64,000 nt of DNA from positions 1 to 64,000 of the forward strand of contig JAJDDT010000044.1 in the NCBI GenBank assembly GCA_029260165.1, written 5' to 3'. Positions 31,384 through 50,753 of this stretch are shown here, one piece after another. The notes below the pieces were generated by a model, which was not told where the DNA came from, made no database searches, and worked only from the letters and a program-made list of their open reading frames with translations. This DNA comes from Phycisphaerae bacterium (GTDB lineage: Bacteria; Planctomycetota; Phycisphaerae; UBA1845). Within the stretch, counting starts at the first letter, position 1. Each line of letters starts with the position of its first letter. The position numbers were made by a program, and so were the translations under genes.

Positions 31384-31922
31384 AACTTCCCTTTCCTCAC
31401 AGAGTTCACTACAAGGCTCACATTTCCAGTTTCCAGAGATGAAACCCGGAAACACACCGATGTCCATTTTGCCACGCGGTTCTCAGCCGGACTGTTACAG
31501 CGCCTTGAACACGCGGAACAGGGTGTGGGGCGGGAATGTCCGCAAGTCACACGTCAGGGTCCGATCATCGTGACGTCGGCGGCGGTTTTACAGGATTATT
31601 TGCTTAAATTTATGCGTCCCGTGGACGTCAGAAATACCGCGAACGATCCGGTGGTGTGTTGTAGCGGGCAATTGTTAGCGTATTATGATATTTGGCGTGT
31701 TGTCCTGAATGTTTCGTCGTTCGGCGGTCGTTCCCATCTGAAACAGGCCGGTCCCGTGTGTGGCAGGGGGGTGATCATCGTGTTCTGCCTGTCCGGGTGA
31801 CCATTTTCTGATAGCATGGCGTTTGGATTTGCCAATGAATGGACTGGCGCGAAATTTCCGGATGGCAGCGTGCGAAAGGATCGATCGCTGTCGGCGTTGA
31901 GCCGGCCGCTATTGAATTGAAC
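31384..31922. other. Divergent intergenic region, about 540 nt
   Basis: The region lies between the starts of the dockerin-like gene (-) and the hybrid kinase (+), so it must carry both promoters. It is relatively AT-rich around 31600-31700. I found no clear -35/-10 pair and no strong sigma-54 site. Nothing else was recognised. Confidence 0.5.
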
Positions 31923-34199: not shown

Positions 34200-34213
34200 T
34201 TCACATCGCGCGA

Positions 34214-34960: not shown

Positions 34961-35014
34961 TGCACGACGCTCCTTCTGACGTATCCCGGCTGTTTCCTTT
35001 ATCATGTCGTTTTC

Positions 35015-38000
35015 CTATCGGTTTTTTCGAGACGTCGGGACGATGGCGGCGTCTCGGCTGTTGCGTGCCACCATGACCGCGACTTCCTCTATCGTGTTCA
35101 CGCTCACTGGAACGTTTCCATCCGTCCACAGACCTGTTTGATCCCACGCAGCCGTCAGCGTAAACGCGCCGACCGCATTACCCGACGCCCGGAGTGTGGC
35201 TGTACCGATGTACGCCATTTCGTCTTCAAACACGCTCACGCCCGGACCAACAACCACACCACCGATGCGATCCAGCTCCTGATCGACAGCCGGGAAGCCC
35301 TGGAGACCGTGGAAAACGTAATCTCCGCGATGGGTGCTGACCTCAAGCGAATCAACGTGCAACCGGCCCTCGCGACCACCATCAACACGGATGCCGAATT
35401 GATAGCCAACCAATCCCTGAACCCCGGACGCAAAGATGTCCACATGAACAACGCCGTTGGGCCTGATCACGCGCTGGCTGGATCGCAGGATGATGCGGGG
35501 AGAATCCGCGCCGTCTGCGAAACGCTCCTCACGGATGGACTTCGCCTCATCGGCCAGCCTTCCCCGATTGGAAACATCCACGATACCATGCGACGCAGCC
35601 GTCACCTGCGCGCCGCATCCGGTGCTCGCGGGCGGTTGGATATCATCACACCGGTTTGCCTGTGGTTCCTGATCGCACGAAAACGGATTGTCTCCGCCAA
35701 ACGCGCTGACGATGGCAAGGATGTCTGCGGTCGACACGGGTATGCCGTCAGGACCCTTGCAATTGGCATCGTCGACGGAACACCCCGGCGCTGAGGAATT
35801 CCACAAATCCGCATTGGGGCAGGCACAGTAGTTTCCGAATCCCTCGACGGCACACAGGATGTCATCTGTTCCCACGAATCCGTTAAATATGGCGCAGGTA
35901 TTGCCGAAACGACGCTTGCAGGACAGACACTGCCCGGCTTCGCAATAGTGGTAATCGCAAACGTCCGGCGGCGTGCCCGCGGCGATCATGTTCGTGTAGC
36001 AGTCGCAGTCGCGGGTGCAATCGGGCACAGTACACACCTCTCCCACGCACTCGGAAGTGTCGCCCTGATAAGCTCCGCCCAGGACGTTGACGCATTCGTC
36101 GGCTGTCTCAACGGTGCACGTCATCCCGACGCAGCAGGCACCGGTGTTGCAATCCACATCCAGACAGGTTCCGCCAAGCGTAAACGTATTCGCGCCGGCC
36201 ATTATCAAACAGGCTGCCTCGTCCGCCGTGGGTACACACGACTCGTTGTCGAGACAACAGGCTCCATCATCACACGGACTGCCGGCGCAATTCGTGTCGT
36301 CACCAAGATACCGGGAACCGGGAATCAGGTTGCAAATCGCTTCGGTCCCGACCGAGCATGAGAATCCGTCGCAACAGGCACCGCGTGCACAGGGATCCCC
36401 TGCGCATGTGCTCGCGTCTCCGAGATAGGTTCCCGCAAGGGCGGAGCACTCCGCGGCTGTCTCAATCGTACAGGTCACACCATCGCAGCAGGCACCCGTG
36501 TTGCAATCCACACCCAGGCAGTCTGCACCAAGGGTAAACGTGTTGGCACCCGCCATCTGCAAACACGCGGTCTGGCTGGTAGAAGCCACGCACGACTCGT
36601 TGTCCAGGCAACACGCACCGTCGTCACATGGGTTGCCGATGCAATCCGTGCTCCCACCCTGAAAAACCCCGCCGGCGATCAACGCGCAACTCGCGGGTGT
36701 TTCCAACGTGCACATGACACCATCGCAGCAGGCACCTTGCAAAGGTGCGACACCGACAGGGTTCAGACTGAAAACCTCGATGATGTCGGCCTGACCGGTG
36801 TTGCCGCCGCCATCGATCAACGTTACGAGTTCGATCGAGATAATGCCCAGCACGTCGTGCAGATTGTCCAGGTCCAGGAAAATGATGTTGGCTACGTTGT
36901 TGCCCGGTGCAACGTTCAGACCATCGATATCCGCACCCTGTCGTCCGCCGGAGAAGCTCAGAAAAACGAATTCGCCGACCGCAACCGGTGGCATGGGGTT
37001 GCTCTCAATATCAAGAACCTCAACGACAATACCAAAGTCATCCGTGTTACCGTTTTCGATGTCCGGAATCGCCTGGGTGCTGGAAACGCGCGTGTTGGTG
37101 TCAACGATCGCGATTTCAAAAGTGCGGGCCGTCGTGGCCGTCGACAGACCCGACGACGGATCATCGAATCGTCCCCGCCCATCGACAAAGTGGACAATTT
37201 CTGATGGGCTGAACGAGCCTCCGAATGTCGTGGTATCGGGGGTGTTCAGCCTTACCGCCCGCACGCCCTGGGAGAGAAGACTGATATTTTCCGTGTAGGT
37301 ACCGCTCGACAATTCCTCCGCGGAGGTCTGCACGGTCTGGAGCAGGTCCAGCCCACCGATCGGGCCGGGCAGATTGATGAAATCAGCCGCCAGGTCTGGA
37401 AAGCCCTTGACGAGCTGCGGGATCGCACAAATCTCTATATTCGGATTGCACGGTGCGCACGCCGGAACGTTACATCCAGCGTGGATACAGTTACCACACA
37501 AAAGGTTGAACGTCGGGTCAACCAGCACCGATCCATTTCCGATCGTGTCCTGAGCCTGCACACCAAGATTCGCCTGCACGAAACTGCCCAGATCCGTATT
37601 CAGAAACTCATTGGTCACAAGCGCATCGCTCGGGACCGCCTGGACAGCCGCGAAAACCGTCGCCTGAAACGGCATGCCAATTTCGTCCTGTCCCATGGTG
37701 GGTTCGATAATGGTCACGGTCACGGATGTTGGCAGGGGCAACGCGTTGACGGCCCCCCCCCCGGCACTGTTGGTCGCAGCCACACTAACCGGTACGCTGG
37801 CAGACATTCCGACAGACGCCCCGGCACCGGTCGTTACCGCGAGTGCCGGGAATCCCAAGGCTGGTCCTGCCACAGCCGTCGCAGGTGGTCCCGCCGCAAA
37901 CGTGGCAACATTGGCGGCGGTCGATATGCCGACGCTGGTGACGCTCATGTCGATGGCAGTAATTCCACCCACGTTGGCGCAAAGGACACCCGGGAAACAC

Positions 38001-39172
38001 GTCTCTGTGCCCGACAGGACATCAACAAACTGCTCGGTAGCGTCGGCGACGGTGAATTCAGGATCAGAGGTCGTGGCAGTTGCCTTGCCCGGTGAGGGGA
38101 AGAAAGGACCGGCGTTGCGAACGTGGCGGTAGGCAAATGTTGCGTCGGCTACCGGATCGTCATCGACAGGCGACGCGTTTTCGGTCGTCTTGAGCTGATC
38201 GACCAGAACACGAGCATAGCCGTTGGCTACGCCGGGATTCAGCCTGCCATTGTTCGACTCGGAAATCTGCGGAACAAGCAAACTGAAGGGAGAACCTTCA
38301 AAAAGGTGCATTTCATGGTCGACGCACTGTAAGACGTTACCCGCGCACTCACTGCTCAAGGGTAAAGGCTGTTTGTTGAAATCAAAGTTAAAATCGTCGT
38401 TTGATGCGAAGCCGTCCAAAAGCGCGTCGACGCCCAGGACCAGTCCGGTATCGAGTGCCGGGTCCGCACCAAAGGGCACACAGTCGCCCGCGTGCTGATC
38501 GTCGCACAATTCGCGGTAACCTGCCGCGTCCCGATTGACGAGCAGGAACACGCTCGATCCATTCTGCAGGATCCCACTGATTCGTTCGTCCGGCCCGCCC
38601 GTATCGATCAGGTTCTCCGCCTGAATCGCCGGAAACACCGAAGTCGTTTGAAAATGGTTTCCGTTGATGGCGATGAACGTAAAATCGGGTGAGACAGCCA
38701 CCATACCATCGTTGATCAGCGCGGTCTCGGGCGTGGCAAGGGCGGTCGCCGGATTGCCCAGGTAATCAACCCAACCGAGCACGATTGCGCTGTCTGCCGG
38801 CACCGCAAGTGCCCCGACTGTCGTCCCGTTGGAGGGATCAATATCCAGCGTCGGCAGGTCGAGTCGATAATTGACCAACGCGGCACCGGCACCGCCACCA
38901 CTGTTCTTGTCGCCCTCGACCTCGTAAATCGTCAGGTCCAACGAGTCTTTGTTGAGCAGAAGACTGATATCCAGGAGCGGCGGGATATAAATCTCGATGA
39001 AACTCTGGTGCAGATTGGTGGGATCTCGACCGACCGGACCGTCTGTCGCACCCGGGGGATCGGTGTACACCTCGGTGATGATCGGATGGTCCGGACCAAC
39101 GCCTAAGCAAACGCTAATGCTCAACAGATGCGCGAGCCACCAGAAACGTGCTTTTTGAAAAACGTCTTTCAT
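35015..39172 (-). CDS. Giant secreted protein: Cys-rich modules, dockerin-like region and cohesin-like domain
   Basis: From the ATG at 39172 (GGAGAGGAAACC upstream) this is a 1385-aa exported protein with an LTD-like N-terminus (ITEVYTDPPGATDG). A large beta-rich body follows. Then come six tandem Cys modules, each about 38-41 aa, of the form GACC..C....C...G...C.G.PC. They form a triplet that is duplicated: units 1-3 match units 4-6. Next are a Cys-rich stretch and a dockerin-like EF loop (GPDGIPVSTADILAIVSAFGG). The C-terminus (about 1240-1370, VIRPNGVVHVDIFASGVQGLVGYQFGI) looks like a cohesin fold. A role as a cell-surface or complex-building protein is inferred. Confidence 0.85.
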   Translation of the reverse strand: MKDVFQKARFWWLAHLLSISVCLGVGPDHPIITEVYTDPPGATDGPVGRDPTNLHQSFIEIYIPPLLDISLLLNKDSLDLTIYEVEGDKNSGGGAGAALVNYRLDLPTLDIDPSNGTTVGALAVPADSAIVLGWVDYLGNPATALATPETALINDGMVAVSPDFTFIAINGNHFQTTSVFPAIQAENLIDTGGPDERISGILQNGSSVFLLVNRDAAGYRELCDDQHAGDCVPFGADPALDTGLVLGVDALLDGFASNDDFNFDFNKQPLPLSSECAGNVLQCVDHEMHLFEGSPFSLLVPQISESNNGRLNPGVANGYARVLVDQLKTTENASPVDDDPVADATFAYRHVRNAGPFFPSPGKATATTSDPEFTVADATEQFVDVLSGTETCFPGVLCANVGGITAIDMSVTSVGISTAANVATFAAGPPATAVAGPALGFPALAVTTGAGASVGMSASVPVSVAATNSAGGGAVNALPLPTSVTVTIIEPTMGQDEIGMPFQATVFAAVQAVPSDALVTNEFLNTDLGSFVQANLGVQAQDTIGNGSVLVDPTFNLLCGNCIHAGCNVPACAPCNPNIEICAIPQLVKGFPDLAADFINLPGPIGGLDLLQTVQTSAEELSSGTYTENISLLSQGVRAVRLNTPDTTTFGGSFSPSEIVHFVDGRGRFDDPSSGLSTATTARTFEIAIVDTNTRVSSTQAIPDIENGNTDDFGIVVEVLDIESNPMPPVAVGEFVFLSFSGGRQGADIDGLNVAPGNNVANIIFLDLDNLHDVLGIISIELVTLIDGGGNTGQADIIEVFSLNPVGVAPLQGACCDGVMCTLETPASCALIAGGVFQGGSTDCIGNPCDDGACCLDNESCVASTSQTACLQMAGANTFTLGADCLGVDCNTGACCDGVTCTIETAAECSALAGTYLGDASTCAGDPCARGACCDGFSCSVGTEAICNLIPGSRYLGDDTNCAGSPCDDGACCLDNESCVPTADEAACLIMAGANTFTLGGTCLDVDCNTGACCVGMTCTVETADECVNVLGGAYQGDTSECVGEVCTVPDCTRDCDCYTNMIAAGTPPDVCDYHYCEAGQCLSCKRRFGNTCAIFNGFVGTDDILCAVEGFGNYCACPNADLWNSSAPGCSVDDANCKGPDGIPVSTADILAIVSAFGGDNPFSCDQEPQANRCDDIQPPASTGCGAQVTAASHGIVDVSNRGRLADEAKSIREERFADGADSPRIILRSSQRVIRPNGVVHVDIFASGVQGLVGYQFGIRVDGGREGRLHVDSLEVSTHRGDYVFHGLQGFPAVDQELDRIGGVVVGPGVSVFEDEMAYIGTATLRASGNAVGAFTLTAAWDQTGLWTDGNVPVSVNTIEEVAVMVARNSRDAAIVPTSRKNR
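36032..36737 (-). repeat. Six Cys-rich modules in two repeated triplets
   Basis: Within the giant protein, two blocks of about 116 codons repeat. Each block has three modules; modules 2 and 5 share DDGACCLDNESCV and MAGANTFTLG, and modules 3 and 6 share NTGACC and C(T)ETA(D)EC. This indicates an internal duplication of a three-module block. Confidence 0.8.
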
Positions 39173-39200
39173 TGGTTTCCTCTCCAGGTGTGGACGCTGA

Positions 39201-39917
39201 TTACTGGTGCTTGTCCATGGCCTCCCAGATCTCAGCGATAATTGGATTGTCAAAAAGGTCGAATGGTTCCCCAAGGTCATTGTTGGTGAAAATACCAGGG
39301 TCGGGGATCCACGAAACGTGTCCATCGGTGAAAGCCGCATTAACCCCGTTCTTATGCGCGGATTTTATGACTTTCGGCATGTGCATGACATCGCTGAAAA
39401 CAGCAATGGATTTTCGAAAATGACTCAACGGACGCCCGCTCAGGAGATGACGCCGGGCGTAGGAGGCTCGGGTGTCAAACCCGTCGTTGGGCGGCCAGGG
39501 ATTCTCATCCGTATCAAACCGGTGAAACTCATCGCGTTGAAACGGACAATAGAGCAGTTCAACATTGGGTATATACTCGTTATTCGACGTCAAAGGCCCG
39601 AAGTTTTCGTGTCGGTCCCTCCCGTCATACATCAGGTAGTTGTACTGCCAGCGACCGTCATTCTCCTCGTTGTTCAGCGCCTGAAAGATATTGCGCTCAT
39701 TGAGGAACAACGTTTGCGCCAGCATGACCGTCCGGAGATTCGTCTTGCAGATCGTCTCCTTGCCCTGCCTCCGCGCTCCACGCAAAGACGGCAACAGGAT
39801 CGAAATCAGAAGTGCAATGATGGAGACCGAGACGAGCAGCTCAATGAGCGTAAATGCGCGAATCGGCCGACGCCTTGCCCTGGTTAAAATCGTTTTAGCG
39901 CGTATCTCGAACATGAT
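39201..39917 (-). CDS. Prepilin-type N-terminal protein (DUF1559-like)
   Basis: The N-terminus has the prepilin peptidase signal RAFTLIELLVSVSIIALLISI with Glu at position 5 of the mature part, and the C-terminal FTDGHVSWIPD motif is typical of the planctomycete DGH/DUF1559 type. The ATG at 39917 has AGGA upstream. It lies just 7 nt after the stop of the sulfatase-like gene and 28 nt before the start of the giant secreted protein, so all three may be one operon. These proteins are believed to be secreted or pilus-like; their precise job is unknown. Confidence 0.88.
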   Translation of the reverse strand: MMFEIRAKTILTRARRRPIRAFTLIELLVSVSIIALLISILLPSLRGARRQGKETICKTNLRTVMLAQTLFLNERNIFQALNNEENDGRWQYNYLMYDGRDRHENFGPLTSNNEYIPNVELLYCPFQRDEFHRFDTDENPWPPNDGFDTRASYARRHLLSGRPLSHFRKSIAVFSDVMHMPKVIKSAHKNGVNAAFTDGHVSWIPDPGIFTNNDLGEPFDLFDNPIIAEIWEAMDKHQ

Positions 39918-39924
39918 CTGATTC

Positions 39925-41331
39925 CTAATCGATGTATCCAAGATTGTGTATTCGCTCGACAACGCTGGAGTCGATCACCGTGTCGTCACCAGCACCGTCG
40001 TCCGTTGGTTCACCCAAACCCCACCACCAACCGTCAAATCGCTTTTCCAACGCGCGACGTATCTCGTCGTGCGTGGGGTCCGCGGTAAGGTCCTTTTGCT
40101 CGGACGGGTCGTTTTCCACGTCAAAAAGCCTGACCGAGCACTTCGCAGGACATTCCCGGTCGACCAGTTGGCGAGGCGTGCTGTTCCGGTCGTAACGAGA
40201 ATCGGACGGGTCAAACAACCATTCACGATGCATCTTCCATCGCCGGGTTCGCATGGACTGCCGATAACGACAACTCGTCCGCAACTCACCGAATACAGGC
40301 CGATCGTCGTCGGCACCTGTCGGCTCGCGAATGTCCCGGTACCCATTCGTAGGCCCGGAATCCGCCACCTTCAACAACGTACCGGACAAATCAGCCAGGC
40401 TGACCGGATGCGCGTGGCGGACACCACGCTCGTCGCCGGGAATAGAAGCGATAAGAGGGACGTGGGTCACTTCGTCGTGCAGCGAATGCCCATGCCCGAT
40501 CGATCCGTGTTCGAGAAACTCCTCACCGTGATCAGCCGTGATGAACATCGCACATTGATCCTTCAGTCCGGCGGAGGAGAGAAAATTGCAGATAGTCTTT
40601 ATCTTGCCGTCGAGTCGGCGGACGGCGCCATCGTACATCTGGACGATCTGGTCCAGTTCCCCGTCATCCAGCGTTCTTTCCCCCTTTTTCATGGACTTGC
40701 GGAGTTTCCCGTAATCTCGTGCGGAGTATTCACCAAATGCGTTGGTATCTCTGTCCCCGCCGAAAGCAGCCACATGTCGGCGTCTTGGTTTGTAAGGCCA
40801 GTGGGCTTCGAGAAAATGCAGGTACGCGAAAAACGGACGTGACGGGTCGGCGGTGACCCATTTTTCAAACAGTCCGATAAGTCGGTCCGCCTTGCCCGCC
40901 GACGACACATATTCGTCAAATCCACGGTCCAGGCCGGTGAAATCCCCCAATTGGGCGTTGTTGACGAAGGCGGCACATCGTCGACCGCCGGCTGACATTT
41001 TCTCCGACAAGGTGGGCTGCGTGTTTCGCATGCGGTCCGTGGTGACGACATCGCACTGTCGGCTTCGCTTGATTCCCTCAAAAGCGCCATGTTCGGTTGG
41101 GTATAGTCCGGTAAGCATCGACGTGACCGATGGTTTCGTCCATGAACTGGTGCTGAACGCAAGGTCCCATAACTGGCCATTTCTGGCGAGCTGGTCCAGC
41201 GTGGGCGTGGTCTGCCTCGCGTACCCGTAGCCGGAGACGTGGTCCGCCCTGAGGCAGTCAATAACGATCAAGAGTATGCCGCGCACGCACAACCTCGCTT
41301 TGCCATCCTGCTCCCCAACATCCGTGGTCAC
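39925..41331 (-). CDS. Sulfatase-like enzyme with Thr at the nucleophile position
   Basis: This 468-aa protein has the alkaline phosphatase/sulfatase superfamily fold. The first metal motif is IDCLRADH (Asp25, Asp30) and the second is ITADHGEEF with GHGHS after it. At the place where sulfatases have C-x-P-S-R, needed for formylglycine, it has T-K-P-S-V (Thr65, Val69). Thr nucleophiles are known in phosphoethanolamine transferases and lipoteichoic acid synthases. It may therefore be a phosphotransfer or phosphodiesterase enzyme. No signal peptide or membrane segment is seen, and the start is GTG. It is the first gene of a possible operon with the prepilin-like gene and the giant secreted protein. 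Confidence 0.88.
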   Translation of the reverse strand: MTTDVGEQDGKARLCVRGILLIVIDCLRADHVSGYGYARQTTPTLDQLARNGQLWDLAFSTSSWTKPSVTSMLTGLYPTEHGAFEGIKRSRQCDVVTTDRMRNTQPTLSEKMSAGGRRCAAFVNNAQLGDFTGLDRGFDEYVSSAGKADRLIGLFEKWVTADPSRPFFAYLHFLEAHWPYKPRRRHVAAFGGDRDTNAFGEYSARDYGKLRKSMKKGERTLDDGELDQIVQMYDGAVRRLDGKIKTICNFLSSAGLKDQCAMFITADHGEEFLEHGSIGHGHSLHDEVTHVPLIASIPGDERGVRHAHPVSLADLSGTLLKVADSGPTNGYRDIREPTGADDDRPVFGELRTSCRYRQSMRTRRWKMHREWLFDPSDSRYDRNSTPRQLVDRECPAKCSVRLFDVENDPSEQKDLTADPTHDEIRRALEKRFDGWWWGLGEPTDDGAGDDTVIDSSVVERIHNLGYID

Positions 41332-41681: not shown

Positions 41682-42908
41682 GTGAATTTGAACGGAACAC
41701 ACAAGGCGTCTGGTGGTGGGCAGTCGCGCCGCATGATGACGTATTGCTACGACAGCATGGGTGTTGGTCATATTCGTCGATCGCTGACGATTTGCGATCA
41801 TCTGACGCAGTCGTTTGAGCATTCGTCGTTTCTGATTGCGACCGGTACGCCTTATGTGCCGCTGCTGCAACCATCTCGCGGCGTGGATTACGTCAAGCTG
41901 CCTTCGATCATGAAACGCCCGAACAGCGGTTATGGCTGCAAGTATCTGTCGCTGGACAATCGTCAGATGTTCAAGTGTCGCAAGGCCCTGCTGTTGACGA
42001 CGGTGCAATATTACAGACCAAGCATTTTGCTTGTCGATCGTGCTCCTTCGGGCGTGTATGGAGAACTGGTTCCCGTGCTTCGCTGGCTTCGTCGTAACTG
42101 TCCTGAGACAGCCGTGGTGTTCGGAATGCGCGATATCGAGGATGCACCTGAGCACACCATACAGAAATGGTCGTCTGACGGTGTGATCGACGCGCTGGAG
42201 GAGTATTTCGACGAGATATGGGTATACGGCAGCCGCGACGTGTACGACGTCGCTGAAGAGTACAAGCTCCCGCACAGTTTGCGTGAGAAGATGATCTTCA
42301 CGGGTTACCTTGAGCGGGCGGAGTGTGGCCACGTCGCCTCGAAGTCGGGGAAGCATCCGGAGGTTCTGGTCACCGTGGGTGGCGGGACGGATGGTGCGCG
42401 TCTTTTGCGTATGTATCTGGGTGCGGCAGCGCAGGGTGTTGCGAGCATGGGCGGATCCTCGACGATTGTCGGGGGGCCGGATTTGCCCGGTCCCGCGGCT
42501 GCCCGGTTGCGTACGATGTCATTGTCGCTGCCTGCGACGCGTTGGATCGATGAGGCGCGGTGCATGAGTTGCCTGATGCGCAGTGCGGATCTCGTGGTGT
42601 CGATGGGTGGTTACAACACGATGTGCGAGATCGCGTCGTTCGGGAAGTCTGCGTTGATTGTTCCGCGCACGAAGCCACGATACGAGCAGGCTATTCGGGC
42701 TGCGTTGTGGGACCAGCTTGGTGTGGTCACTGCCACGCACCCGAACACGTTGTCACCTGAAAAACTGAGTGATCGAGTGGTCAGGCTGCTGGACGGTGAT
42801 CGTTCGCCTGACCGAACAGGTTTGGATATGCAGGGTCTGGATCGCATCGCTGAGCGATGCAGTGCCTTATGGTATGGAGCTGGCTGTGAATCTGTTGTAC
42901 ATATGTAG
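41682..42908 (+). CDS. Glycosyltransferase, COG4671-like
   Basis: This is a GT-B fold enzyme of the predicted glycosyltransferase type related to MurG. The N-terminal nucleotide-like loop is SMGVGHIRRS, and the C-terminal donor site is VSMGGYNTMCEIASFG with a following PRTKPRYEQ. The GTG at 41682 has a perfect AGGAGG five bases upstream, so it is the best start. It is the first gene of a six-gene block, and its end overlaps the next glycosyltransferase by 35 nt. The sugar donor and acceptor are unknown. Confidence 0.9.
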   Translation: MNLNGTHKASGGGQSRRMMTYCYDSMGVGHIRRSLTICDHLTQSFEHSSFLIATGTPYVPLLQPSRGVDYVKLPSIMKRPNSGYGCKYLSLDNRQMFKCRKALLLTTVQYYRPSILLVDRAPSGVYGELVPVLRWLRRNCPETAVVFGMRDIEDAPEHTIQKWSSDGVIDALEEYFDEIWVYGSRDVYDVAEEYKLPHSLREKMIFTGYLERAECGHVASKSGKHPEVLVTVGGGTDGARLLRMYLGAAAQGVASMGGSSTIVGGPDLPGPAAARLRTMSLSLPATRWIDEARCMSCLMRSADLVVSMGGYNTMCEIASFGKSALIVPRTKPRYEQAIRAALWDQLGVVTATHPNTLSPEKLSDRVVRLLDGDRSPDRTGLDMQGLDRIAERCSALWYGAGCESVVHM

Positions 42909-44145
42909 CGATTTCGGAATTCCTCTTGGTGGCACGAAGGGCGCGTCCATTCATGTGCGTTCGATCACTCGAGCGCTCTGCGAATCCGGACACGATGTGT
43001 CGATTCTCAGTCCCCGGCCCAGCCTGGGTCTGGATCACCCCGCGAGCCTGTTGCTTGCGCAATCCCCCAGAGAGCTGACCGAGCCTGCGGACCGATTGCG
43101 TCGATACATGAAGGATCGGGAACTGCCGCACGAGTTGGCCGGCGAGATTCGTTCGCTGCAATACAACGAGTGGGTTGCTTCGCGTGCGCTCGATGCTCTG
43201 CGTGACAATCCTCCAGACGTCGTCGTTGAGCGGTTGTCACTGTTTGGTCACGCTGGTCTGGACCTCTCTTCGGAATTCGGCTGCCCACTTGTGATTGAGG
43301 TCAATGCGCTAATGAGTGAGGAGGCGGCCACGCACCGCGGTCTTCAGATGCAGCCCCTTGCGAAACAGATTGAGGATCGTGTTCTCGGGCGAGCCGACGC
43401 GATTCTTGCCGTGTCGCAATCGCTGCGTGGTGCGATTTGCGAGCGAGGCGTCGCCCCGTCAAAGGTGCATCTGGTCCCCAACGGTGCGGATGTTGAGGCG
43501 TTCGATCCCGGGGTCGGTGGAACAGCCATACGGGGGCAATACGGGCTGGAGGATCGCTTTGTCATTGGGTTTGCGGGCAGTCTCAAGTCATGGCATGGCG
43601 TGGACCTGCTGATCTTCGCATTTCGCAATGTCCTTGCTGAAGATTCGGAGGCCAGGCTGCTCATCGTGGGTACCGGTCCGACGGAGCAGGCGTTGAAAGA
43701 TCAGGTCCAGTTGTTGAAACTGTCACACGCGGTTGTTTTCACCGGGGCGGTCGATCATTCAAAAATGCCGGCGTGCCTGTGTGCGATGGACGTGGCTGTC
43801 GCGCCGTTCCGGTCGGCGGAATGTTTCTATTTTTCACCGATCAAACTGTTTGAATATATGGCATCGGGATGTTGCGTGGTGGCGAGCAATCTCGGACAGA
43901 TAGAGGATGTCATCGGTGATGGCGAGCACGGTCTGCTCTGCGCACCGGATAATGTGGAGTCCCTGACACAAAAGCTGCTCCTGGCTCGCAATGATCCATC
44001 TCTGAGGAAGCGACTTGCCTCGGCTGCCCGGGCGCGCGTCGAGCGGGACTTTACCTGGCGTCTGGCGGCGATGACAACGGGCAATGTGCTGTCGGGTCTG
44101 GTGTCGCGATCGGATGCTGTTTCATCGAATCGGGTGCCGGCGTGA
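42874..44145 (+). CDS. Family 4-type glycosyltransferase
   Basis: This GT4-like enzyme of about 423 aa has an N-terminal acceptor half with GGTKGASIHVRSITRALC. Its donor-binding half has the typical features VPNGADVEAF, GFAGSLKSWHG, LIVGTGP and, in place of the usual E-x7-E, FYFSPIKLFEYMASGCCVV. I chose the ATG at 42874, although GTG 42886 is possible. It overlaps the first gene by 35 nt. No membrane segment is present, so it should work at the cytoplasmic face on a carrier or lipid-bound acceptor. Confidence 0.9.
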   Translation: MELAVNLLYICSDFGIPLGGTKGASIHVRSITRALCESGHDVSILSPRPSLGLDHPASLLLAQSPRELTEPADRLRRYMKDRELPHELAGEIRSLQYNEWVASRALDALRDNPPDVVVERLSLFGHAGLDLSSEFGCPLVIEVNALMSEEAATHRGLQMQPLAKQIEDRVLGRADAILAVSQSLRGAICERGVAPSKVHLVPNGADVEAFDPGVGGTAIRGQYGLEDRFVIGFAGSLKSWHGVDLLIFAFRNVLAEDSEARLLIVGTGPTEQALKDQVQLLKLSHAVVFTGAVDHSKMPACLCAMDVAVAPFRSAECFYFSPIKLFEYMASGCCVVASNLGQIEDVIGDGEHGLLCAPDNVESLTQKLLLARNDPSLRKRLASAARARVERDFTWRLAAMTTGNVLSGLVSRSDAVSSNRVPA

Positions 44146-44188
44146 GCGGGTCTGACGTTTCATGGTTGCGACTGACTGAAAAGGTTTT

Positions 44189-45487
44189 GTGAAAATGCGG
44201 ATCGGTTATCAACTTAGAATGTATCCAAGGTTCACACAAACATTTGTTGTGAATGAGATTATCGAACTCGAACGACAGGGCGTTGATATCGGTATTCTGT
44301 CACTGAGAAAACCGACCGACGGCTATTTCCACGAGTCGATCAGCCGCGTTTCGGGAAAAGTGGAGTATACGCCTGAATTGTTCGCCGAATCCCGTATGAA
44401 GATTCTCAAAGCGCATGGCCAATGGTCATCGAAATCCCCTCGTGGATATGGTCGGGCGTTTTCTGAGATGCTGCGTCACAAGGGGATCGATTCGGTCGAT
44501 TTTCTGCAGGCTCCGATGGCATTGCTCTGGGCTGCGAAGCGCAAATTTGAACATGTGCACATCCACTTCGGAACGCACGAAGCCTCGGTGGCTTATCTCG
44601 CTCATCTGATCGGCGGCTTGTCCTACAGCCTGACGTTGCACGCCTTTGACATCTTTCGCGACAACGTGGACCGGGTGTTGCTCGCCCGAAAAATCAATGC
44701 CTCGCGATTCACTGTGACGGTGAGCGAATACAATCGCAACTTTATGGTGAAAAACCTTCCGGGCGTGATCCCTGAAAAAATCCGTGTTAATTACAACGGT
44801 ATTGACGGGGAACTTTTCCGGGACGAGGGTCTGGAACGCGAACCGAACTCGATCCTGAGCGTCGGGCGTCTTATTGAAAAGAAGGGCTTTGCCGATCTGA
44901 TTCAGGCTGTTGGACGCCTTCGTGATGCGGGTGTGGTTGCGAAATGTACGATTGTCGGAGACGGTCGCGAGAAGGCGAACCTGAAGTCCCTGATTTCCAA
45001 ACTTAAGTTGAAAGATTCTGTCAAACTGGCCGGATCGTTGAGTCAGGACCGGGTGCGTGAATTGATGAATCGTTCAGCCTGTCTGGCGTTGCCGTGCGTG
45101 CAGGCCAAAGATGGAAACATCGATGCGTTGCCGACTGTGCTGTTGGAAGCGATGGCCTGTGGTTGCCCTTGCGTCAGTACGATACTGTCGGGCGTGCCGG
45201 AGATTATTGAGGACAGGCGGTCGGGTCTTCTTGTCGAGCCGGGGGACGTCGTTGCGTTGTCTGATGCGATAGGAAAGATGCTTGGCGACGCTGACGCGCG
45301 ACGCGGATTCGCAGCCGAAGGCAGGATCCGGGTCGAAAAACTTTTCGACGTTCGTACCAATGTCGATCGCATGCGCGGGTGGTTTTCTGAAACCAGGGCG
45401 GCTTCATCAGCGACAGAAGGAGCGTCAAAGCGAGCCGGCGCGGTAGCTGGGCAAGGTAACACCAACCCCACGGAGTGCGCGATGTGA
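44189..45487 (+). CDS. Family 4-type glycosyltransferase
   Basis: Another GT4-like enzyme, 432 aa. Donor-half signatures are YNGIDGELF, SVGRLIEKKGF, IVGDGREK and LPTVLLEAMACGCPCVS, the E-x7-E region. The middle has a His-rich HVHIHFGTHEAS, typical of GTs acting on polyprenyl-linked chains. AAAAGG precedes the GTG at 44189 by four bases; the ATG two codons on is the alternative. The stop overlaps the exporter's start (GTGA), so translation is coupled. It shares low similarity with the previous GT, which implies different linkages. Confidence 0.9.
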   Translation: MKMRIGYQLRMYPRFTQTFVVNEIIELERQGVDIGILSLRKPTDGYFHESISRVSGKVEYTPELFAESRMKILKAHGQWSSKSPRGYGRAFSEMLRHKGIDSVDFLQAPMALLWAAKRKFEHVHIHFGTHEASVAYLAHLIGGLSYSLTLHAFDIFRDNVDRVLLARKINASRFTVTVSEYNRNFMVKNLPGVIPEKIRVNYNGIDGELFRDEGLEREPNSILSVGRLIEKKGFADLIQAVGRLRDAGVVAKCTIVGDGREKANLKSLISKLKLKDSVKLAGSLSQDRVRELMNRSACLALPCVQAKDGNIDALPTVLLEAMACGCPCVSTILSGVPEIIEDRRSGLLVEPGDVVALSDAIGKMLGDADARRGFAAEGRIRVEKLFDVRTNVDRMRGWFSETRAASSATEGASKRAGAVAGQGNTNPTECAM

Positions 45488-47373
45488 GATGGTGGCAATC
45501 CATCAAAACCCGCCGTGGGAAGCTCAATCTCGGTGCGATGAACACCATCCGCAGGCGGTTTTTCAAGTATGTCCGCCCGCACTGGCGATCGCTTGCGATT
45601 GCGCTGGGTGCGACGTTCGGCGCGGTTGCGATGAATGTGGCAGCCCCCTGGCCTATCAAATTCGTCTTTGATATCGTGCTCGACAACAAGATGGGGGATT
45701 CCACGGTTGGTCAGTGGTTCGCCGAATATGCACCGGGTCCCACCACTGCGTTGTTGATTATTTGCGGTGGGATCATGCTCATCGCACTCGGGCAGGCGGG
45801 CTTCGCTTACATGCGCGACGTCATTCTTGCCAGGACGGGTCAGGAGGTCGTCGGCAGGCTTCGTCACGACCTGTTTCGCCACATGCAGAAGCTGTCGCCC
45901 GACGTATTTGAGAGTCGCCGAACCGGTGATCTGCTCATGCGGTTCACCGGCGATATCCAAATGCTTCGACAGATGATCGTCAACGCGTGGGTCACCGCAG
46001 CCGAGAACCTGCTCACCATCGCGGTCACGATGCTGGTCATGTTCTGGCTTAACCCGCGATTGGCTGTCCTGGCCATGTTGACTTTGCCGATCGCGATCTG
46101 GTCGGCGGTGAATATTTCCAAGCGCATCCGCCACGCAGCCAAGAGTCAGCGTGAAAAGGAGAGTTTTGTCGCGTCCATTGCGCACGAAGTGTTCGGCGCG
46201 ATCGGCGTGGTTCAGGCTTTCAATCGTCAGAAGATCGAGTTGCGGCGATTCGCCAGGCAGAATCGCAGCTCGATCAGGGCCGGCGTTCGGACAACCAAGC
46301 TGGAATCGAGACTGTTCAGGATCGTTGTGTTGGCGTCGGCGACCGGCGTCTGCATGGTGCTGTTTGTGGGTGTTCTGGATGTTCTTGCGGGGGTGATGAC
46401 GGCGGGGGACCTGCTTGTTTTCGTCGCGTATGTCCGTTCGATCGGCAAGCCCCTTCGCAAGATGTCCAAGCTCGCGAGTCAAACCGCCAAAGCGACGGTT
46501 TGCGGCATGCGAATTGCTGAAATGCTCAACATCAAACCTGCGGTCAAGGATGGACCGGATGCGATATCGGCGGAGGGGATTGTTGGCCACATCGCTGTTG
46601 ACAATGCGGGATTCACTTATCCGGACGGAACCCCTGCGTTGCACGACGTCTCGTTCAGAATCGAATCCGGCGAACGCGTCGCGGTTGTTGGCAGAAGCGG
46701 TGCGGGCAAGAGTACACTGATGAAACTGCTTCTGCGGTTCTATGATGTATCTGACGGCCGGATCGCCTTCGACGACCGGGACATTCGTGAATTCACCGTC
46801 GCGTCCCTTCGCGACCAGATTGCCGTCGTCCAGCAGGAAACGGTGTTGTTCGGACTGTCTATCGCGGAAAACATCGCCATAGGCTGCGAAAGTGTCGATC
46901 CGATCGCCGTCAAGAAGGCTGCCAAACAGGTGGGTATTCACAAATTTATTCGCACGCTCCCGCAAGGGTATGAAACGAAACTTGCCGAGCGCGGTGTCAC
47001 ACTATCGGGTGGTCAGCGGCAGCGCATCGCACTGGCGAGAGCCTTGCTCCGGTCCGCTCCGATTCTCATTCTCGATGAACCGATTACCGGGCTTGATGCT
47101 GAAAGTGCTCAGGTGTTGGAAGATCAGGTGATCAACAATGAATCGCGGCGGACAACGCTCGTGATTTGCCACGATATGTCGTCGATGAAGCAATTCGACA
47201 AGATTATTGTGATGGACGCGGGTACCGCAGCCGCGGTGGGTACGCACGAGGAATTGCTGGATTCCTGCGAGCGATATGCAAAACTCTATTCGACCTGGTT
47301 CGCCCGATCGGGCACGCCGGGTAACTCTGAAGGAATTGATCTTGCTTACGAATCAAAACGACTGGCCTGTTGA
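45484..47373 (+). CDS. MsbA-like ABC exporter (fused permease and ATPase)
   Basis: This is a half-size exporter: an N-terminal membrane domain with about six helices and then an ATPase with Walker A GRSGAGKS, signature LSGGQRQR, Walker B ILILDEP and H-loop CHDMSS. Such proteins homodimerise and flip lipids or lipid-linked sugars. The GTG at 45484 overlaps the previous stop by 4 nt and has GGAG eight bases upstream. Its place directly after the glycosyltransferases makes it the likely exporter of their product. The substrate is inferred. Confidence 0.94.
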   Translation: MRWWQSIKTRRGKLNLGAMNTIRRRFFKYVRPHWRSLAIALGATFGAVAMNVAAPWPIKFVFDIVLDNKMGDSTVGQWFAEYAPGPTTALLIICGGIMLIALGQAGFAYMRDVILARTGQEVVGRLRHDLFRHMQKLSPDVFESRRTGDLLMRFTGDIQMLRQMIVNAWVTAAENLLTIAVTMLVMFWLNPRLAVLAMLTLPIAIWSAVNISKRIRHAAKSQREKESFVASIAHEVFGAIGVVQAFNRQKIELRRFARQNRSSIRAGVRTTKLESRLFRIVVLASATGVCMVLFVGVLDVLAGVMTAGDLLVFVAYVRSIGKPLRKMSKLASQTAKATVCGMRIAEMLNIKPAVKDGPDAISAEGIVGHIAVDNAGFTYPDGTPALHDVSFRIESGERVAVVGRSGAGKSTLMKLLLRFYDVSDGRIAFDDRDIREFTVASLRDQIAVVQQETVLFGLSIAENIAIGCESVDPIAVKKAAKQVGIHKFIRTLPQGYETKLAERGVTLSGGQRQRIALARALLRSAPILILDEPITGLDAESAQVLEDQVINNESRRTTLVICHDMSSMKQFDKIIVMDAGTAAAVGTHEELLDSCERYAKLYSTWFARSGTPGNSEGIDLAYESKRLAC

Positions 47374-48679
47374 TCCGGAATTCGGTTCGATCGTCGAAGC
47401 ACTCTCTCCGCAAAGCGTGTTGCCGACGCTGCGCGCGAAGATCAACCCCGAAGCCCGGACCTGCCGCGCTATCGAAGCCATGTACGATCCGGGATTGCAG
47501 ATTCGGGTCGCGTACACACTTCTCGAAGATGAGAACCGGAGGAACTGGCCTGACGGCGATGTCTGCTACCTTCGATATCCCGTACGACATCCCATGTCGC
47601 GGCGTGGGGAAATACTGGAAATCGGCGGTTTCTCGATGGAATTCTATCGTTTCCCGAACGATCGCCGACTCCGGGGTCTGAGAAAATTCGCGTCGCGCAT
47701 CCACGCCGCGCAAACGTGGCAGAGGTGGTTGAGTGAGGACGAAACCTCGCTTGAGTTGCAGCCCGAGACCCTTCGCCGCGACCTGCTCAGATACGTTCCG
47801 GAACAAAAGTGGATTGCGTTTCTCCAGGCGAAATGCATTGACAATGTGGCAGAGCAACAGGTCAAACGGGCGATCGCCGTACGGTCTGCCGACAGCGATG
47901 ATTGTCGCTCGATTCATGCACGCCTGGTCGCTCTGCGCCGAGCCCGCCACGCGTCCGGCGGGTTGTTTCGCGTGCCCAAGCCCGTAGCGCTCGATACCAG
48001 ACTGGGACTCAGTGCCGTGCGATGGGTGTGGGGCGATTCACTCCTGGACATCCTCGGAACCGGCGATGTCAGCACGACGATGGAATACATCGCGACCGGG
48101 CTGCAATCGTTTCACCACACGCGAATGGCTGGACTTCCCGTGCAGCTCCCCTCAGATCAGTTCATCAGCATGACGCGATGTGCGGAGGACATTGGGGCAG
48201 CCATGCCGGATTTGCGGAACGATCTTCGAACCATGATCAGCGCACTAAGATCCTCGATTCCCGACGACGTGCAGGATACGCAGGTCACGCTGCACAACGA
48301 TTTCCATCCAATGCAGCTTCGCGGACGACCCGGTCGGCTTACGCTGTTGGACCTGGAACGCTGCGCGAACGGCGACCGCTGGGTGGATGTCGCGAGTTTT
48401 GCAGCACAGTTGTCCGCACTCCCGATTCGATCCGATTGCGACATCTCAGAGTCGACGAGCCGATCGTGGGCGCAATCATTTCTCAACGCATGGGAGTCGT
48501 CGACCGGTGTGCCGGTAAACATTCACCGAATACGCTGGTATTCCGCCCTCGCCTTTCTCACCTTTGCAAGGGGGATGCTTCGTCACCTTCGACCCGGATG
48601 GGAGGCGCTCGCACGTGGTTGTGTTGACCGCGCGCTTGAATGTGCCCACCTGCGGGATGATCTGGAGATTCTCACATGA
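47342..48679 (+). CDS. APH-fold phosphotransferase, first of a pair
   Basis: The C-terminal half has the kinase motif HNDFHPMQ and the metal motif LLDLERC, as in aminoglycoside phosphotransferases and choline kinases. The N-terminal half is of unknown fold and unlike standard APH enzymes, which are about 270-300 aa. The TTG at 47342 has AAGGA seven bases before it and lies inside the exporter's last codons. The frame is open for 22 more codons. It overlaps the next gene by 4 nt (ATGA). The target is probably a sugar, choline-like group or lipid rather than an antibiotic. Confidence 0.82.
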   Translation: MLTNQNDWPVDPEFGSIVEALSPQSVLPTLRAKINPEARTCRAIEAMYDPGLQIRVAYTLLEDENRRNWPDGDVCYLRYPVRHPMSRRGEILEIGGFSMEFYRFPNDRRLRGLRKFASRIHAAQTWQRWLSEDETSLELQPETLRRDLLRYVPEQKWIAFLQAKCIDNVAEQQVKRAIAVRSADSDDCRSIHARLVALRRARHASGGLFRVPKPVALDTRLGLSAVRWVWGDSLLDILGTGDVSTTMEYIATGLQSFHHTRMAGLPVQLPSDQFISMTRCAEDIGAAMPDLRNDLRTMISALRSSIPDDVQDTQVTLHNDFHPMQLRGRPGRLTLLDLERCANGDRWVDVASFAAQLSALPIRSDCDISESTSRSWAQSFLNAWESSTGVPVNIHRIRWYSALAFLTFARGMLRHLRPGWEALARGCVDRALECAHLRDDLEILT

Positions 48680-50040
48680 TCGCGATGCGCCCAATGGACG
48701 ACCTCGCCCTCACCCTTGCCAGATGTCTGAACCTGCGGTTCATGCGTGATGAATTGAACCGCAGCATCCATTTCCCGGAAGGTGTGCGTGTCGCTTCTGT
48801 TCGGGTGCGCCGGTTCTCGCCGAGGCGGAATAACCGTTTCGACCTGGAGTATATACTGAGGTTGACAGGCCCGCGTGGTCTGGGCGCGCAGAGGTTTTCG
48901 CTTTTTGCGCGCTGTCCGGGTCTTGAAGACACCGACGTTTGTCATTCCGATCATGCCGTCATCACACAGTCGCGGTTGTCCGGTATCTGCGTCAATCTTC
49001 CCGGTATGGGTGCCACGTTCCACACTCTCGACATGGACCCGACGTTTCCCGGAGTGGATTCGATCATCGACCCCGGGGACATGGCTGCCTGTCTTTCATC
49101 GCTGATTCCTTCACGACCGGTTGATCCCGCTCATCTTTCGTGCAAGCTTCTGACCTTTCGGCCCGGCCGGCGCGTTGTCGTCGAGCTGTGTGAACAGCAG
49201 AGAAGCGGGCTGACACGCCGTTGGGCGGGAAAGCGATTCGCACGCCGCCGCGGTCGCAAGCTTGCCGGGATTCATCAGCATGTAGCCGACCATTTTGCGA
49301 AATCCACGGACGGAACGGTGCGGTTGCCGAACCTCGTCGGTTTCGACAAATCCCGGGAAATGATCGTCACGGAATGGCGGGAAACCAACCACCGCCGCGA
49401 ATCGTGGCAGAATTCCATGACCGTCGCCAAACGCTCCGCGCAGGTACTCGCCGCGCTGCACGCGGTGCCGACCGGTGAGATTCGCCAGGCCAACGGTGAA
49501 CACTACTGGCAGACGCTGGCACGCTGGAGCGATCTTATTGTTCGATTGAGGCCCGAAATGGCCGAAGCCGCCAGGATGTGGGTTTTGCGACTTGCTGAGC
49601 TTCGCCCTCCGGTTTCCCCTTCTCAACTTGTGACAACCCACGGCGATTTTTATGAAGCACAATTGATCATCGAGGAGGAATCGACGACCCTGCTCGACCT
49701 GGATACCCTGGCCGTCGGAAACCCGTGTCTCGATCTGGGAAATGCTCTTGGACACTTCTGGCTGACGGCGATCGAACAAAAATCGGGTTTTCAGGGTTTC
49801 GCGGCTACGGTGCGTATTTTCCTCAGCGAATACGAATCGCTGGGTGGTAGTATTGATGAGGAGAGTTTGATTTATTATTGGGCAGCCACGGTGTTTCGGG
49901 CGGGCGCACTGCACACCTTTCGTTCAAAAACATGCAATGCGGCCCGATTCCTGTGGGAGGTTCTCGATCCACTGCTCCGTCACGGTCTGTCGCTGCTCGA
50001 CGACCCTATTACCGCCTCATACCTGGACCGGGTGTGGTAG
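48676..50040 (+). CDS. APH-fold phosphotransferase, second of the pair
   Basis: A second kinase of the same fold, 454 aa. It has HGDFYEAQ (the normal APH-type catalytic loop) and the metal motif LLDLDT. It also carries an extra N-terminal region of about 150 residues. Overall similarity to the first kinase is low, so they are not a recent duplication. It is coupled to it by an ATGA overlap and is the last gene of the tight operon. Two different kinases in one glycosyltransferase/exporter operon are unusual. Confidence 0.82.
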   Translation: MIAMRPMDDLALTLARCLNLRFMRDELNRSIHFPEGVRVASVRVRRFSPRRNNRFDLEYILRLTGPRGLGAQRFSLFARCPGLEDTDVCHSDHAVITQSRLSGICVNLPGMGATFHTLDMDPTFPGVDSIIDPGDMAACLSSLIPSRPVDPAHLSCKLLTFRPGRRVVVELCEQQRSGLTRRWAGKRFARRRGRKLAGIHQHVADHFAKSTDGTVRLPNLVGFDKSREMIVTEWRETNHRRESWQNSMTVAKRSAQVLAALHAVPTGEIRQANGEHYWQTLARWSDLIVRLRPEMAEAARMWVLRLAELRPPVSPSQLVTTHGDFYEAQLIIEEESTTLLDLDTLAVGNPCLDLGNALGHFWLTAIEQKSGFQGFAATVRIFLSEYESLGGSIDEESLIYYWAATVFRAGALHTFRSKTCNAARFLWEVLDPLLRHGLSLLDDPITASYLDRVW

Positions 50041-50093: not shown

Positions 50094-50753
50094 ATGCAAA
50101 TGAATGAGCTGGTAAATCGATCAATCATTGTTCCCGTATTGGCATTGCTTGTGTTAACAGGTGTTGCGTACCGGTTTGTTCGGTCGTCCGACAGCCAGGT
50201 GCAGGAAGGAGCCATGACCACCACTGTTGAGGTGAAACGTGTGATCAGTGGGAACAAGTTCAAGACCGAGCCGGAGGGGTACGTCACGCTCGCCGGAATT
50301 CGTGCACCATTCAAGAATGAACCATTGGGCAACGAAGCCATCATCGCTCTTTCCGAAATCATAGACGGCCAACAGGTACGCCTGCGGTTTGGCGATGACA
50401 AGAGAGACAATGAAGATCGTTGGAGTGCGTTCGTCTTTGTCAAAGGCCGGATGGCCAACGAAAAGCTCGTGCGGGACGGACTTGCCTACGCTCGCATCAG
50501 ACCCGGCGACGAACGTTTCATGGACCTCCTGATCGATGCCCAGGCAGAAGCCCGCGAGGAAGGCCGCGGATTGTGGGGGATTCGATCCGACACACAGGAG
50601 GATTTCTATATACCCGACACAAAACACGGGATTTTTCACAGGCCGTCGTGCCCCGATGCCGCCAACATCCCGCTTGAAAGGCAGGTCGATTCCAGGAGTT
50701 TCGATCAGACGATCGGGAGCGGGTTGGCACCCTGTGGAAAATGCAATCCGTAA
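50094..50753 (+). CDS. Membrane-anchored staphylococcal-nuclease-like protein
   Basis: A 219-aa protein with an N-terminal membrane helix (SIIVPVLALLVLTGVAYRFV) and an SNase domain. The signature pieces are LAGIRAP (Arg35-like), a Glu-rich segment near GNEAI and DNEDRWSAFVFVKGRMANEKLVRDGLAYARI. The C-terminus adds a short Cys motif (HRPSCPDA and CGKCNP) like the Ada-type metal-binding end of some nucleases. It should cut nucleic acid outside the membrane. It follows the kinase gene by 53 nt. Confidence 0.87.
   Translation: MQMNELVNRSIIVPVLALLVLTGVAYRFVRSSDSQVQEGAMTTTVEVKRVISGNKFKTEPEGYVTLAGIRAPFKNEPLGNEAIIALSEIIDGQQVRLRFGDDKRDNEDRWSAFVFVKGRMANEKLVRDGLAYARIRPGDERFMDLLIDAQAEAREEGRGLWGIRSDTQEDFYIPDTKHGIFHRPSCPDAANIPLERQVDSRSFDQTIGSGLAPCGKCNP

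What the first reader, a model, noticed from the sequence alone, without database searches (positions are those of the whole stretch)
41682..50040. Compact glycosyltransferase-exporter-double kinase operon
Six genes in a row on one strand overlap or abut: COG4671-type GT, two GT4-type enzymes, an MsbA-like exporter and two dissimilar APH-fold kinases. The overlaps (35 nt, GTGA 4 nt, about 32 nt, ATGA 4 nt) show translational coupling. Glycosyltransferases plus a lipid-type exporter are known in polysaccharide and glycolipid export. Two different phosphotransferases with extra N-terminal domains in the same unit are not part of any system I can name. The inference is a phosphorylated glycoconjugate that is built on the inner face and then flipped. 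It is my best candidate for an undescribed system in the window.
Basis: partly seen in the sequence, partly recalled or inferred. Interest (0 to 1): 0.7.

Follow-up and report, generated by a model that had tools for sequence, protein, structure and literature searches.

The report
Conserved sugar-polymer export cassette with paired kinases
A tight block of six bacterial genes (three sugar-joining enzymes, one membrane exporter and two sugar-kinase-like enzymes) recurs together in dozens of distantly related bacteria, so it is very probably one unnamed machine that builds a sugar-containing surface molecule, adds phosphate to it or to its building blocks, and moves it out of the cell.

Summary
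The six-gene block is real, with the stated overlaps, except that genes 2 and 3 are separated by a 43-nt gap. It is not a local oddity. The same six genes occur together, on one strand, in 13 of 248 genomes of its class and in at least 19 other genomes of the phylum. They also occur in a Zixibacteria genome and, as a variant, in Nitrospirota and Chloroflexota. Outside the window's order a seventh gene follows: an AlgE-like outer-membrane barrel (PF13372). Chloroflexota carriers have neither this barrel nor Omp85. In the window's order a degenerate SNase-like membrane protein takes that place, and a sulfatase-superfamily gene and a pseudopilin often lie beside the block. The kinases are two ancient paralogues that keep HxDxxxxQ, the Gln form of the catalytic loop found in maltokinase and glucosamine kinase, and a maltokinase-like N-terminal cap is predicted. 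They are fused to each other in ten loci, and to the barrel in one family. Best reading: a glycoconjugate assembly-and-export cassette (MsbA/PglK-like flippase) with two cytoplasmic sugar or glycan kinases. The substrate and the phosphorylation step are inferred. I found no description in the open literature searched. Rated as a new variant of a known kind.

The parts
41682..42908 (+). MurG/COG4671-like glycosyltransferase (GT28), first gene of the block
   Evidence: AGGAGG 5 nt upstream of GTG 41682; orthologues aligned (38 invariant columns in 17 sequences)
42874..44145 (+). GT4-family glycosyltransferase (GT4a), related to but far below the cut-off of XrtA/PEP-CTERM GT TIGR04063
   Evidence: 173 bits against a cut-off of 442; 35-nt overlap with GT28
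44189..45487 (+). GT4-family glycosyltransferase (GT4b), EpsE/WcaL-like, below cut-offs
   Evidence: EpsE 217 bits against a cut-off of 400; starts 43 nt after GT4a
45484..47373 (+). MsbA/PglK/ABCB-type ABC exporter, TMD and NBD in one chain
   Evidence: Walker A GRSGAGKST and signature LSGGQ are present in the translation; GTGA overlap
47342..48679 (+). APH-fold kinase K1 with predicted maltokinase-like N-terminal cap; catalytic loop H340-N-D342-F-H-P-M-Q347 and D359 (numbering from ATG 47276)
   Evidence: (pLDDT 81, pTM 0.82)
48676..50040 (+). APH-fold kinase K2; catalytic loop H322-G-D324-F-Y-E-A-Q329 and D341
   Evidence: pLDDT 64, weaker model; maltokinase 4u94 is hit 3; ATGA overlap
50094..50753 (+). 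Membrane-anchored SNase-like (OB-fold) protein with a C-terminal H/Cys motif; syntenic after K2 in the window's order; standard SNase catalytic residues not recognisable
   Evidence: (31-47% identity in 13 loci)
39925..41331 (-). Divergent sulfatase-superfamily protein, motif SSWTKPSV with no Cys/Ser at the formylglycine position; homologues beside the block in several families
39201..39962 (-). Pseudopilin-like protein (N_methyl), syntenic in most class relatives (12 loci)
35015..39340 (-). Large protein of unknown family (up to 1441 aa; true start probably inside), near the block in 7 relatives
   Evidence: 41-51% identity; no Pfam or NCBIfam match

Best explanation
The block is one functional unit, a glycoconjugate assembly-and-export cassette. 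GT28, GT4a and GT4b build an oligosaccharide on the cytoplasmic face, probably on a lipid carrier. K1 and K2, a paired set of maltokinase-like kinases, phosphorylate the glycan (or the sugar that feeds it) in the cytoplasm before export. The MsbA/PglK-type ABC transporter then flips the product. In most carriers with an outer membrane, an AlgE-like barrel encoded immediately downstream carries it across that membrane. In the window's order that barrel is not at the locus and another route must serve. Shown: gene content, cross-phylum conservation, kinase paralogy, conserved active-site residues, gene fusions, and absence of the barrel and of Omp85 in the four Chloroflexota carriers tested. Inferred: lipid linkage, the phosphate acceptor, the order of steps and polymer length.
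For: Same six genes on one strand within about 8-11 kb in at least 19 further planctomycete genomes (order GT28-GT4b-GT4a-ABC-K1-K2) and in the 13 class relatives that have tandem kinases (order GT28-GT4a-GT4b-ABC-K1-K2; one is cut by a contig end). Complete in Zixibacteria L113 and in Chloroflexota L242; rearranged in Nitrospirota L114, L237 and L238. A seventh gene, a PF13372 alginate-export barrel, follows K2 in 18 of the 19 and in L113 (the exception, L077, ends inside K2). Chloroflexota carriers G658, G627, G657 and G529 have no PF13372 and no Omp85 match. Fusions: K1~K2 in L075, L079, L080, L081, L084, L088, L089, L095, L178 and L242, and K1~K2~AlgE in L079, L081 and L084. K1 and K2 fall on opposite sides of the kinase tree with no crossing. 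Catalytic loop: Q in 48 of 59 K1 rows and 41 of 47 K2 rows; His and the Mg-binding Asp invariant in both. In maltokinase this Gln binds Mg (PMC4306142), and in glucosamine kinase it is a catalytic residue (PMC6520443). The model of K1 shows helices, then three long and two short strands ahead of the kinase domain, matching the published cap description.
Against: No substrate evidence of any kind. No initiating phosphoglycosyltransferase, polymerase or periplasmic adaptor was seen in the core block. The window's genome has no block-type AlgE; its single PF13372 protein is unlinked and scores only 38 bits against the block's profile. The usual phosphate-binding Lys is Arg in about half of K1 rows, including the window's, so K1 activity is uncertain. 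The sister species G348 in the same genus has no K1/K2 match, so the system is patchy. Operon transcription is inferred from spacing only.
Confidence: 0.55

Rival explanations
1. Precursor supply: K1 and K2 are free-sugar kinases (like maltokinase or glucosamine kinase) that make a sugar phosphate which is then activated to a nucleotide sugar for the three GTs. The exported product itself carries no phosphate.
For: The Gln-type catalytic loop and cap are those of free-sugar kinases. Nitrospira, Sulfuriferula and Rhodobacteraceae clusters with the same GT28-GT4b pair carry a histidine phosphatase, which fits turnover of a soluble phosphate ester.
Against: No nucleotidyltransferase or mutase travels with the block. 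Two or more tandem kinases (three in Nitrospira and in some relatives, five in L243) and fusion to the export barrel fit work on the product better than precursor supply.
Confidence: 0.27
2. Peptide modification: the kinases act like the LxmK/TvaE group of RiPP kinases on a peptide, and the ABC protein exports a glycosylated peptide.
For: NCBIfam LxmK is the nearest curated model for K2 (9.8e-10) and for a relative's K1 (6.4e-12). TvaE 8jsu is among the sequence and fold hits.
Against: Both are far below the LxmK cut-off (38 and 45 bits against 315). All six core genes are assigned, with no HopA1-like partner recognised. The ABC transporter has no peptidase domain in its Pfam hits. Three GTs and an alginate-type barrel point to a glycan. 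Short ORFs were not searched systematically.
Confidence: 0.06
3. K1 is a pseudokinase or allosteric partner. Only K2 is catalytic, and the pair regulates or scaffolds the exporter rather than phosphorylating the product.
For: Arg replaces the phosphate-binding Lys in about half of K1 rows. K1 and K2 are fused in ten loci, and in several of these the two halves differ in the loop residue (Gln in K1, Asn in K2).
Against: The K1 catalytic Asp (53 of 59) and Mg-binding Asp (59 of 59) are strongly conserved, which would be unusual for a pseudokinase.
Confidence: 0.12

Closest known systems
PglK/MsbA-type single-chain ABC flippases of lipid-linked glycans or lipid A
   Same: One-chain TMD-NBD half-transporter beside glycosyltransferases; TIGR02203 MsbA 391 bits, PglK 166 bits
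   Different: Below both curated cut-offs (602 and 1000); paired kinases and an AlgE-like barrel travel with it; substrate unknown
Synthase-dependent alginate export (Alg8/44, AlgK, AlgE)
   Same: PF13372 barrel encoded directly downstream of K2 in most non-Chloroflexota relatives
   Different: No GT2 synthase seen in the core; inner-membrane export by an ABC protein; barrel carries DUF5666; absent at the window's locus
Maltokinase Mak and glucosamine kinase GlcNK (APH-fold sugar kinases with N-terminal cap)
   Same: HxDxxxxQ loop with the same Asp-to-Gln spacing, DxD/E motif, predicted cap; Foldseek and profile hits to both
   Different: Very low sequence identity (13-15%); tandem and fused in an export cassette; K1 often has Arg for the phosphate-binding Lys
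Glycan-modifying kinases WaaP/KdkA/WbdD and LicA (from own knowledge)
   Same: Kinase-fold enzymes that put phosphate on envelope glycans or their substituents before or at export
   Different: No curated match to those families for K1 or K2; pneumococcal LicA appears only as a fold hit
XrtA/PEP-CTERM and Eps exopolysaccharide clusters
   Same: GT4a and GT4b resemble TIGR04063 and EpsE; a PrsT-like TPR protein lies at 24415-28770
   Different: All GT matches are far below cut-off; those clusters are not known to have paired APH kinases (own knowledge)

Membership tests
PglK/MsbA-type flippase | TMD and NBD fused in one polypeptide, ABCB/MsbA-like | tested here: met
PglK/MsbA-type flippase | Score above the curated cut-off of MsbA (602) or PglK (1000) | tested here: not met
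   391 and 166 bits
PglK/MsbA-type flippase | Moves a lipid-linked glycan | not testable with these tools
   Needs flipping assay or knockout
Wzm/Wzt or KpsMT ABC-dependent polysaccharide export | Permease and ATPase on separate chains | tested here: not met
   Single chain carries PF00664 and PF00005
Synthase-dependent alginate-type export | AlgE-family outer-membrane barrel in the cluster | tested here: inconclusive
   Met in relatives; not at the window's locus, and no block-type AlgE in G000
Synthase-dependent alginate-type export | GT2-family membrane synthase | tested here: not met
   The three GTs are GT28-like or GT4
Maltokinase/GlcNK-type sugar kinase | HxDxxxxQ catalytic loop with Mg-binding Asp | tested here: met
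   reference motif from PMC4306142 and PMC6520443
Maltokinase/GlcNK-type sugar kinase | N-terminal cap (helix, three long and two short strands) before the kinase N-lobe | tested here: inconclusive
   Predicted for K1 (pLDDT 81) and weakly for K2 (pLDDT 64); no direct superposition of the cap was done
Maltokinase/GlcNK-type sugar kinase | Phosphate-binding Lys | tested here: inconclusive
   Lys in 39 of 47 K2 rows; K1 is Lys 27, Arg 26; window K1 has Arg. The window K2 alignment at this site is ambiguous: the profile alignment puts Arg181 there, with Lys186 close by
Maltokinase/GlcNK-type sugar kinase | Phosphorylates a free sugar | not testable with these tools
   Needs enzyme assay
Class V lanthipeptide kinase LxmK | Above the NCBIfam NF038156 cut-off (315) | tested here: not met
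   15.7 and 38 bits for the window kinases
XrtA/PEP-CTERM glycosyltransferase TIGR04063 | Above cut-off (442) | tested here: not met
   173 bits
Lipopolysaccharide kinase WaaP/Kdo (PF06293) | Match to the family model | tested here: not met
   No PF06293 hit for K1 or K2 up to E = 0.1

The most novel reading that the evidence does not exclude
A previously undescribed, cross-phylum envelope pathway that makes a phospho-glycoconjugate. Tandem maltokinase-like kinases phosphorylate the glycan itself, an MsbA-like transporter flips it, and in outer-membrane bacteria an AlgE-like barrel exports it. This would be a hybrid between ABC-type and alginate-type secretion with a built-in double kinase.
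Probability: 0.38. Interest if true: 0.78.

Novelty: new variant of a known kind. Interest (0 to 1): 0.6.

Why it matters
Surface glycans of planctomycetes, Nitrospira and Chloroflexota are barely charted genetically. This cassette gives a defined, recognisable gene set across those groups, places paired sugar-kinase-like enzymes inside a glycan export operon, and combines an ABC exporter with an alginate-type barrel. It predicts a testable phosphorylated envelope glycan and gives functional context to many proteins now annotated only as aminoglycoside phosphotransferases.

Tried and rejected
A local oddity or chance adjacency: rejected by conservation. Antibiotic resistance by APH proteins: not pursued; fixed pairing with GT/ABC genes and fusions argue against it. 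The GT28-GT4b pair as the whole system: rejected, because it occurs without ABC and kinases in Desulfobacterota-type and Rhodobacteraceae clusters, so it is a shared module. G000's only Alginate_exp protein (C70) as the missing barrel: no support. Low-scoring PF13372 proteins elsewhere in six relatives as block-type barrels: 26-52 bits or no hit with the block profile, not orthologous. Sigma-70 promoter and terminator scan: no more hits than shuffles. Literature searches found no description; only open-licence PMC papers were searchable, so this is weak evidence. Loci of other tools are not accepted as phylum centres until they have a genome handle.
Full report
WHAT IS THERE. The window is bases 1-64000 of a 134-kb contig of a 4.4-Mb genome (list). 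Six + strand ORFs from 41682 to 50040 match the finding. Overlaps of 35, 4, 32 and 4 nt are as stated, but the second and third genes are separated by 43 nt. Pfam gives Glyco_tran_28_C, two GT4 proteins, a one-chain ABC exporter and two APH-fold kinases. No curated NCBIfam model claims any of the six: all matches are below cut-off. A seventh gene, SNase-like, begins 53 nt after K2.

CONSERVATION. K1 and K2 searches over 294 genomes of the phylum, then reading of 40 surrounding stretches with tblastn and with profiles built here, show GT28-GT4b-GT4a-ABC-K1-K2 on one strand in 19 genomes; others are cut by contig ends. The named loci belong to nine planctomycete families (f14, f22, f26, f37, f43, f47, f54, f74, f89). 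Within the window's class, 13 of 248 genomes have strong tandem kinases. All 13 lie in the block, in the window's order GT28-GT4a-GT4b-ABC-K1-K2; one is truncated by its contig end. So the stated refutation, kinases without the GT/exporter set, did not occur in close relatives. In more distant f22 genomes single K1-like copies do occur apart from the block (L085, L086). The nearest sister genome of the same genus (G348) has no match, so the cassette is patchy.

OTHER PHYLA. A scan of species genomes with the GT28 alignment, then profiles, found the complete set in Zixibacteria (L113) and another planctomycete (L178), and a rearranged set in Nitrospirota (L114). Nitrospira genomes carry GT28, GT4b duplicated, heparinase, three kinases, histidine phosphatase, a second GT28-like domain, ABC and AlgE. 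In Chloroflexota, L242 has GT28-GT4b-GT4a-ABC with a two-kinase fusion, L239 a shuffled set, and L243 ABC, GT28, GT4b and five kinases. Many Proteobacteria hits have only GT28-GT4b, sometimes with a histidine phosphatase, and Sulfuriferula (L171) has GT28-GT4b-GT4a-ABC without kinases. GT28-GT4b is therefore a shared module, and the kinases with the ABC exporter mark this system.

THE SEVENTH GENE. In 18 of those 19 planctomycete blocks and in Zixibacteria the gene after K2 is a PF13372 (alginate export) barrel, usually with DUF5666. The exception, L077, ends inside K2. Four Chloroflexota carriers have no PF13372 and no Omp85 match, which fits cells without an outer membrane; control genomes with an outer membrane ring. 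Omp85 was also missed in one planctomycete relative, G420, so absence is not proof. In the window's order the barrel is replaced at the locus by an SNase-like membrane protein, found in the relatives' loci (about 30-47% identity in 13 loci). Its standard nuclease residues are not recognisable in the window copy (reading, own knowledge of SNase), so it is probably not an active nuclease. A pseudopilin (12 loci), a sulfatase-superfamily protein and a large orphan protein are also syntenic on the minus strand of the window. The sulfatase motif is SSWTKPSV, with Thr where Cys or Ser normally becomes formylglycine, so it may be a phosphoester enzyme rather than a sulfatase (inference).

THE KINASES. 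They form two groups in a 100-row tree. All 35 K2 rows lie on one side and all 34 K1 rows on the other (quick tree, SH-aLRT 90 for the split). A third kinase in some relatives descends from K2. Catalytic His and Mg-binding Asp are invariant; the loop residue that is Asn in most APH enzymes is Gln in 48 of 59 K1 and 41 of 47 K2 rows. Maltokinase uses this Gln to bind Mg (PMC4306142), and glucosamine kinase lists it among its catalytic residues (PMC6520443). The K1 model (pLDDT 81, pTM 0.82) shows helices, three long and two short strands before the kinase N-lobe, like the published maltokinase cap. The K2 model is weaker. Fold and profile searches place both in the APH fold, with maltokinase or glucosamine kinase among the hits but not closest by score. 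The phosphate-binding Lys is Arg in about half of K1 rows, including the window's, so K1 may be weak or altered.

FUSIONS. K1 and K2 form one chain in ten loci. In family f74 they continue in frame into the AlgE barrel through a hydrophobic stretch ending in a lipobox-like LVTGC, LNAGC or LLASC. This links the kinases physically to export, but it is topologically odd, and an internal start or processing must be assumed.

HOW IT MOST LIKELY WORKS. Inferred sequence: oligosaccharide made by three GTs on the inner face, phosphate added to glycan or to its sugar by K1/K2 in the cytoplasm, flipping by the ABC protein, then passage through the AlgE-like barrel in most carriers with an outer membrane. 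Shown steps are gene content, conservation, fusions and active-site residues. Substrate, lipid anchor and phosphorylation target are not shown. The main rival is precursor supply by free-sugar kinases.

NOVELTY. Searches of open-licence papers found no description, and no NCBIfam model covers the K1, K2 or barrel proteins tested. Subscription papers were not searchable. I rate it a new variant of a known kind: ABC-mediated glycoconjugate export with a new kinase pair and an alginate-type barrel.

Noticed in passing
L084 2257-6345 (+), L081 7560-11201 (+), L079 2-2944 (-): K1, K2 and the AlgE-like outer-membrane barrel lie in one open frame with an internal lipoprotein-type signal sequence at the junction; a cytoplasmic kinase followed in frame by an exported barrel is very unusual.
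   Followed up: partly
L070 13259-19998, L192, L193, L194 (family f22): The seven-gene block is followed by a beta-helix protein, a PfaD-like oxidoreductase, giant ketosynthase ORFs and ORFs that look like OleA/B/C/D (by eye from sequence starts), i.e. a polyunsaturated hydrocarbon-type cluster next door.
   Followed up: partly
window 50094-50753 and A4: A degenerate SNase-like membrane protein is syntenic after K2 in the class relatives; why it belongs to a glycan cassette is unexplained.
   Followed up: partly
L127, L157, L237, L238 (Nitrospira-type genomes): Variant with heparinase II/III, kinase, histidine phosphatase, kinase, a further kinase, ABC and AlgE.
   Followed up: partly
L137 10007-16019 and similar Rhodobacteraceae or Desulfo- loci: GT28-GT4b-GT-histidine phosphatase-GT28 cluster without ABC or kinases; seems to be a separate uncharacterised glycan system sharing the GT28-GT4b pair.
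   Followed up: no
L243 (Chloroflexota G657): ABC, GT28, GT4b and five APH-like kinases in one run.
   Followed up: no
window 24415-28770 (-): 1451-aa TPR protein close to XrtA/PEP-CTERM PrsT (285 bits against a cut-off of 312).
   Followed up: no
window 30256-31467 (-): Secreted dockerin plus DUF5666 protein; [quoted passage not shown]
   Followed up: no
window 31839-35005: Hybrid histidine kinase and OmpR-type regulator, both with homologues next to the block in L207; other two-component genes lie beside blocks in f22 and in L217-L219.
   Followed up: no
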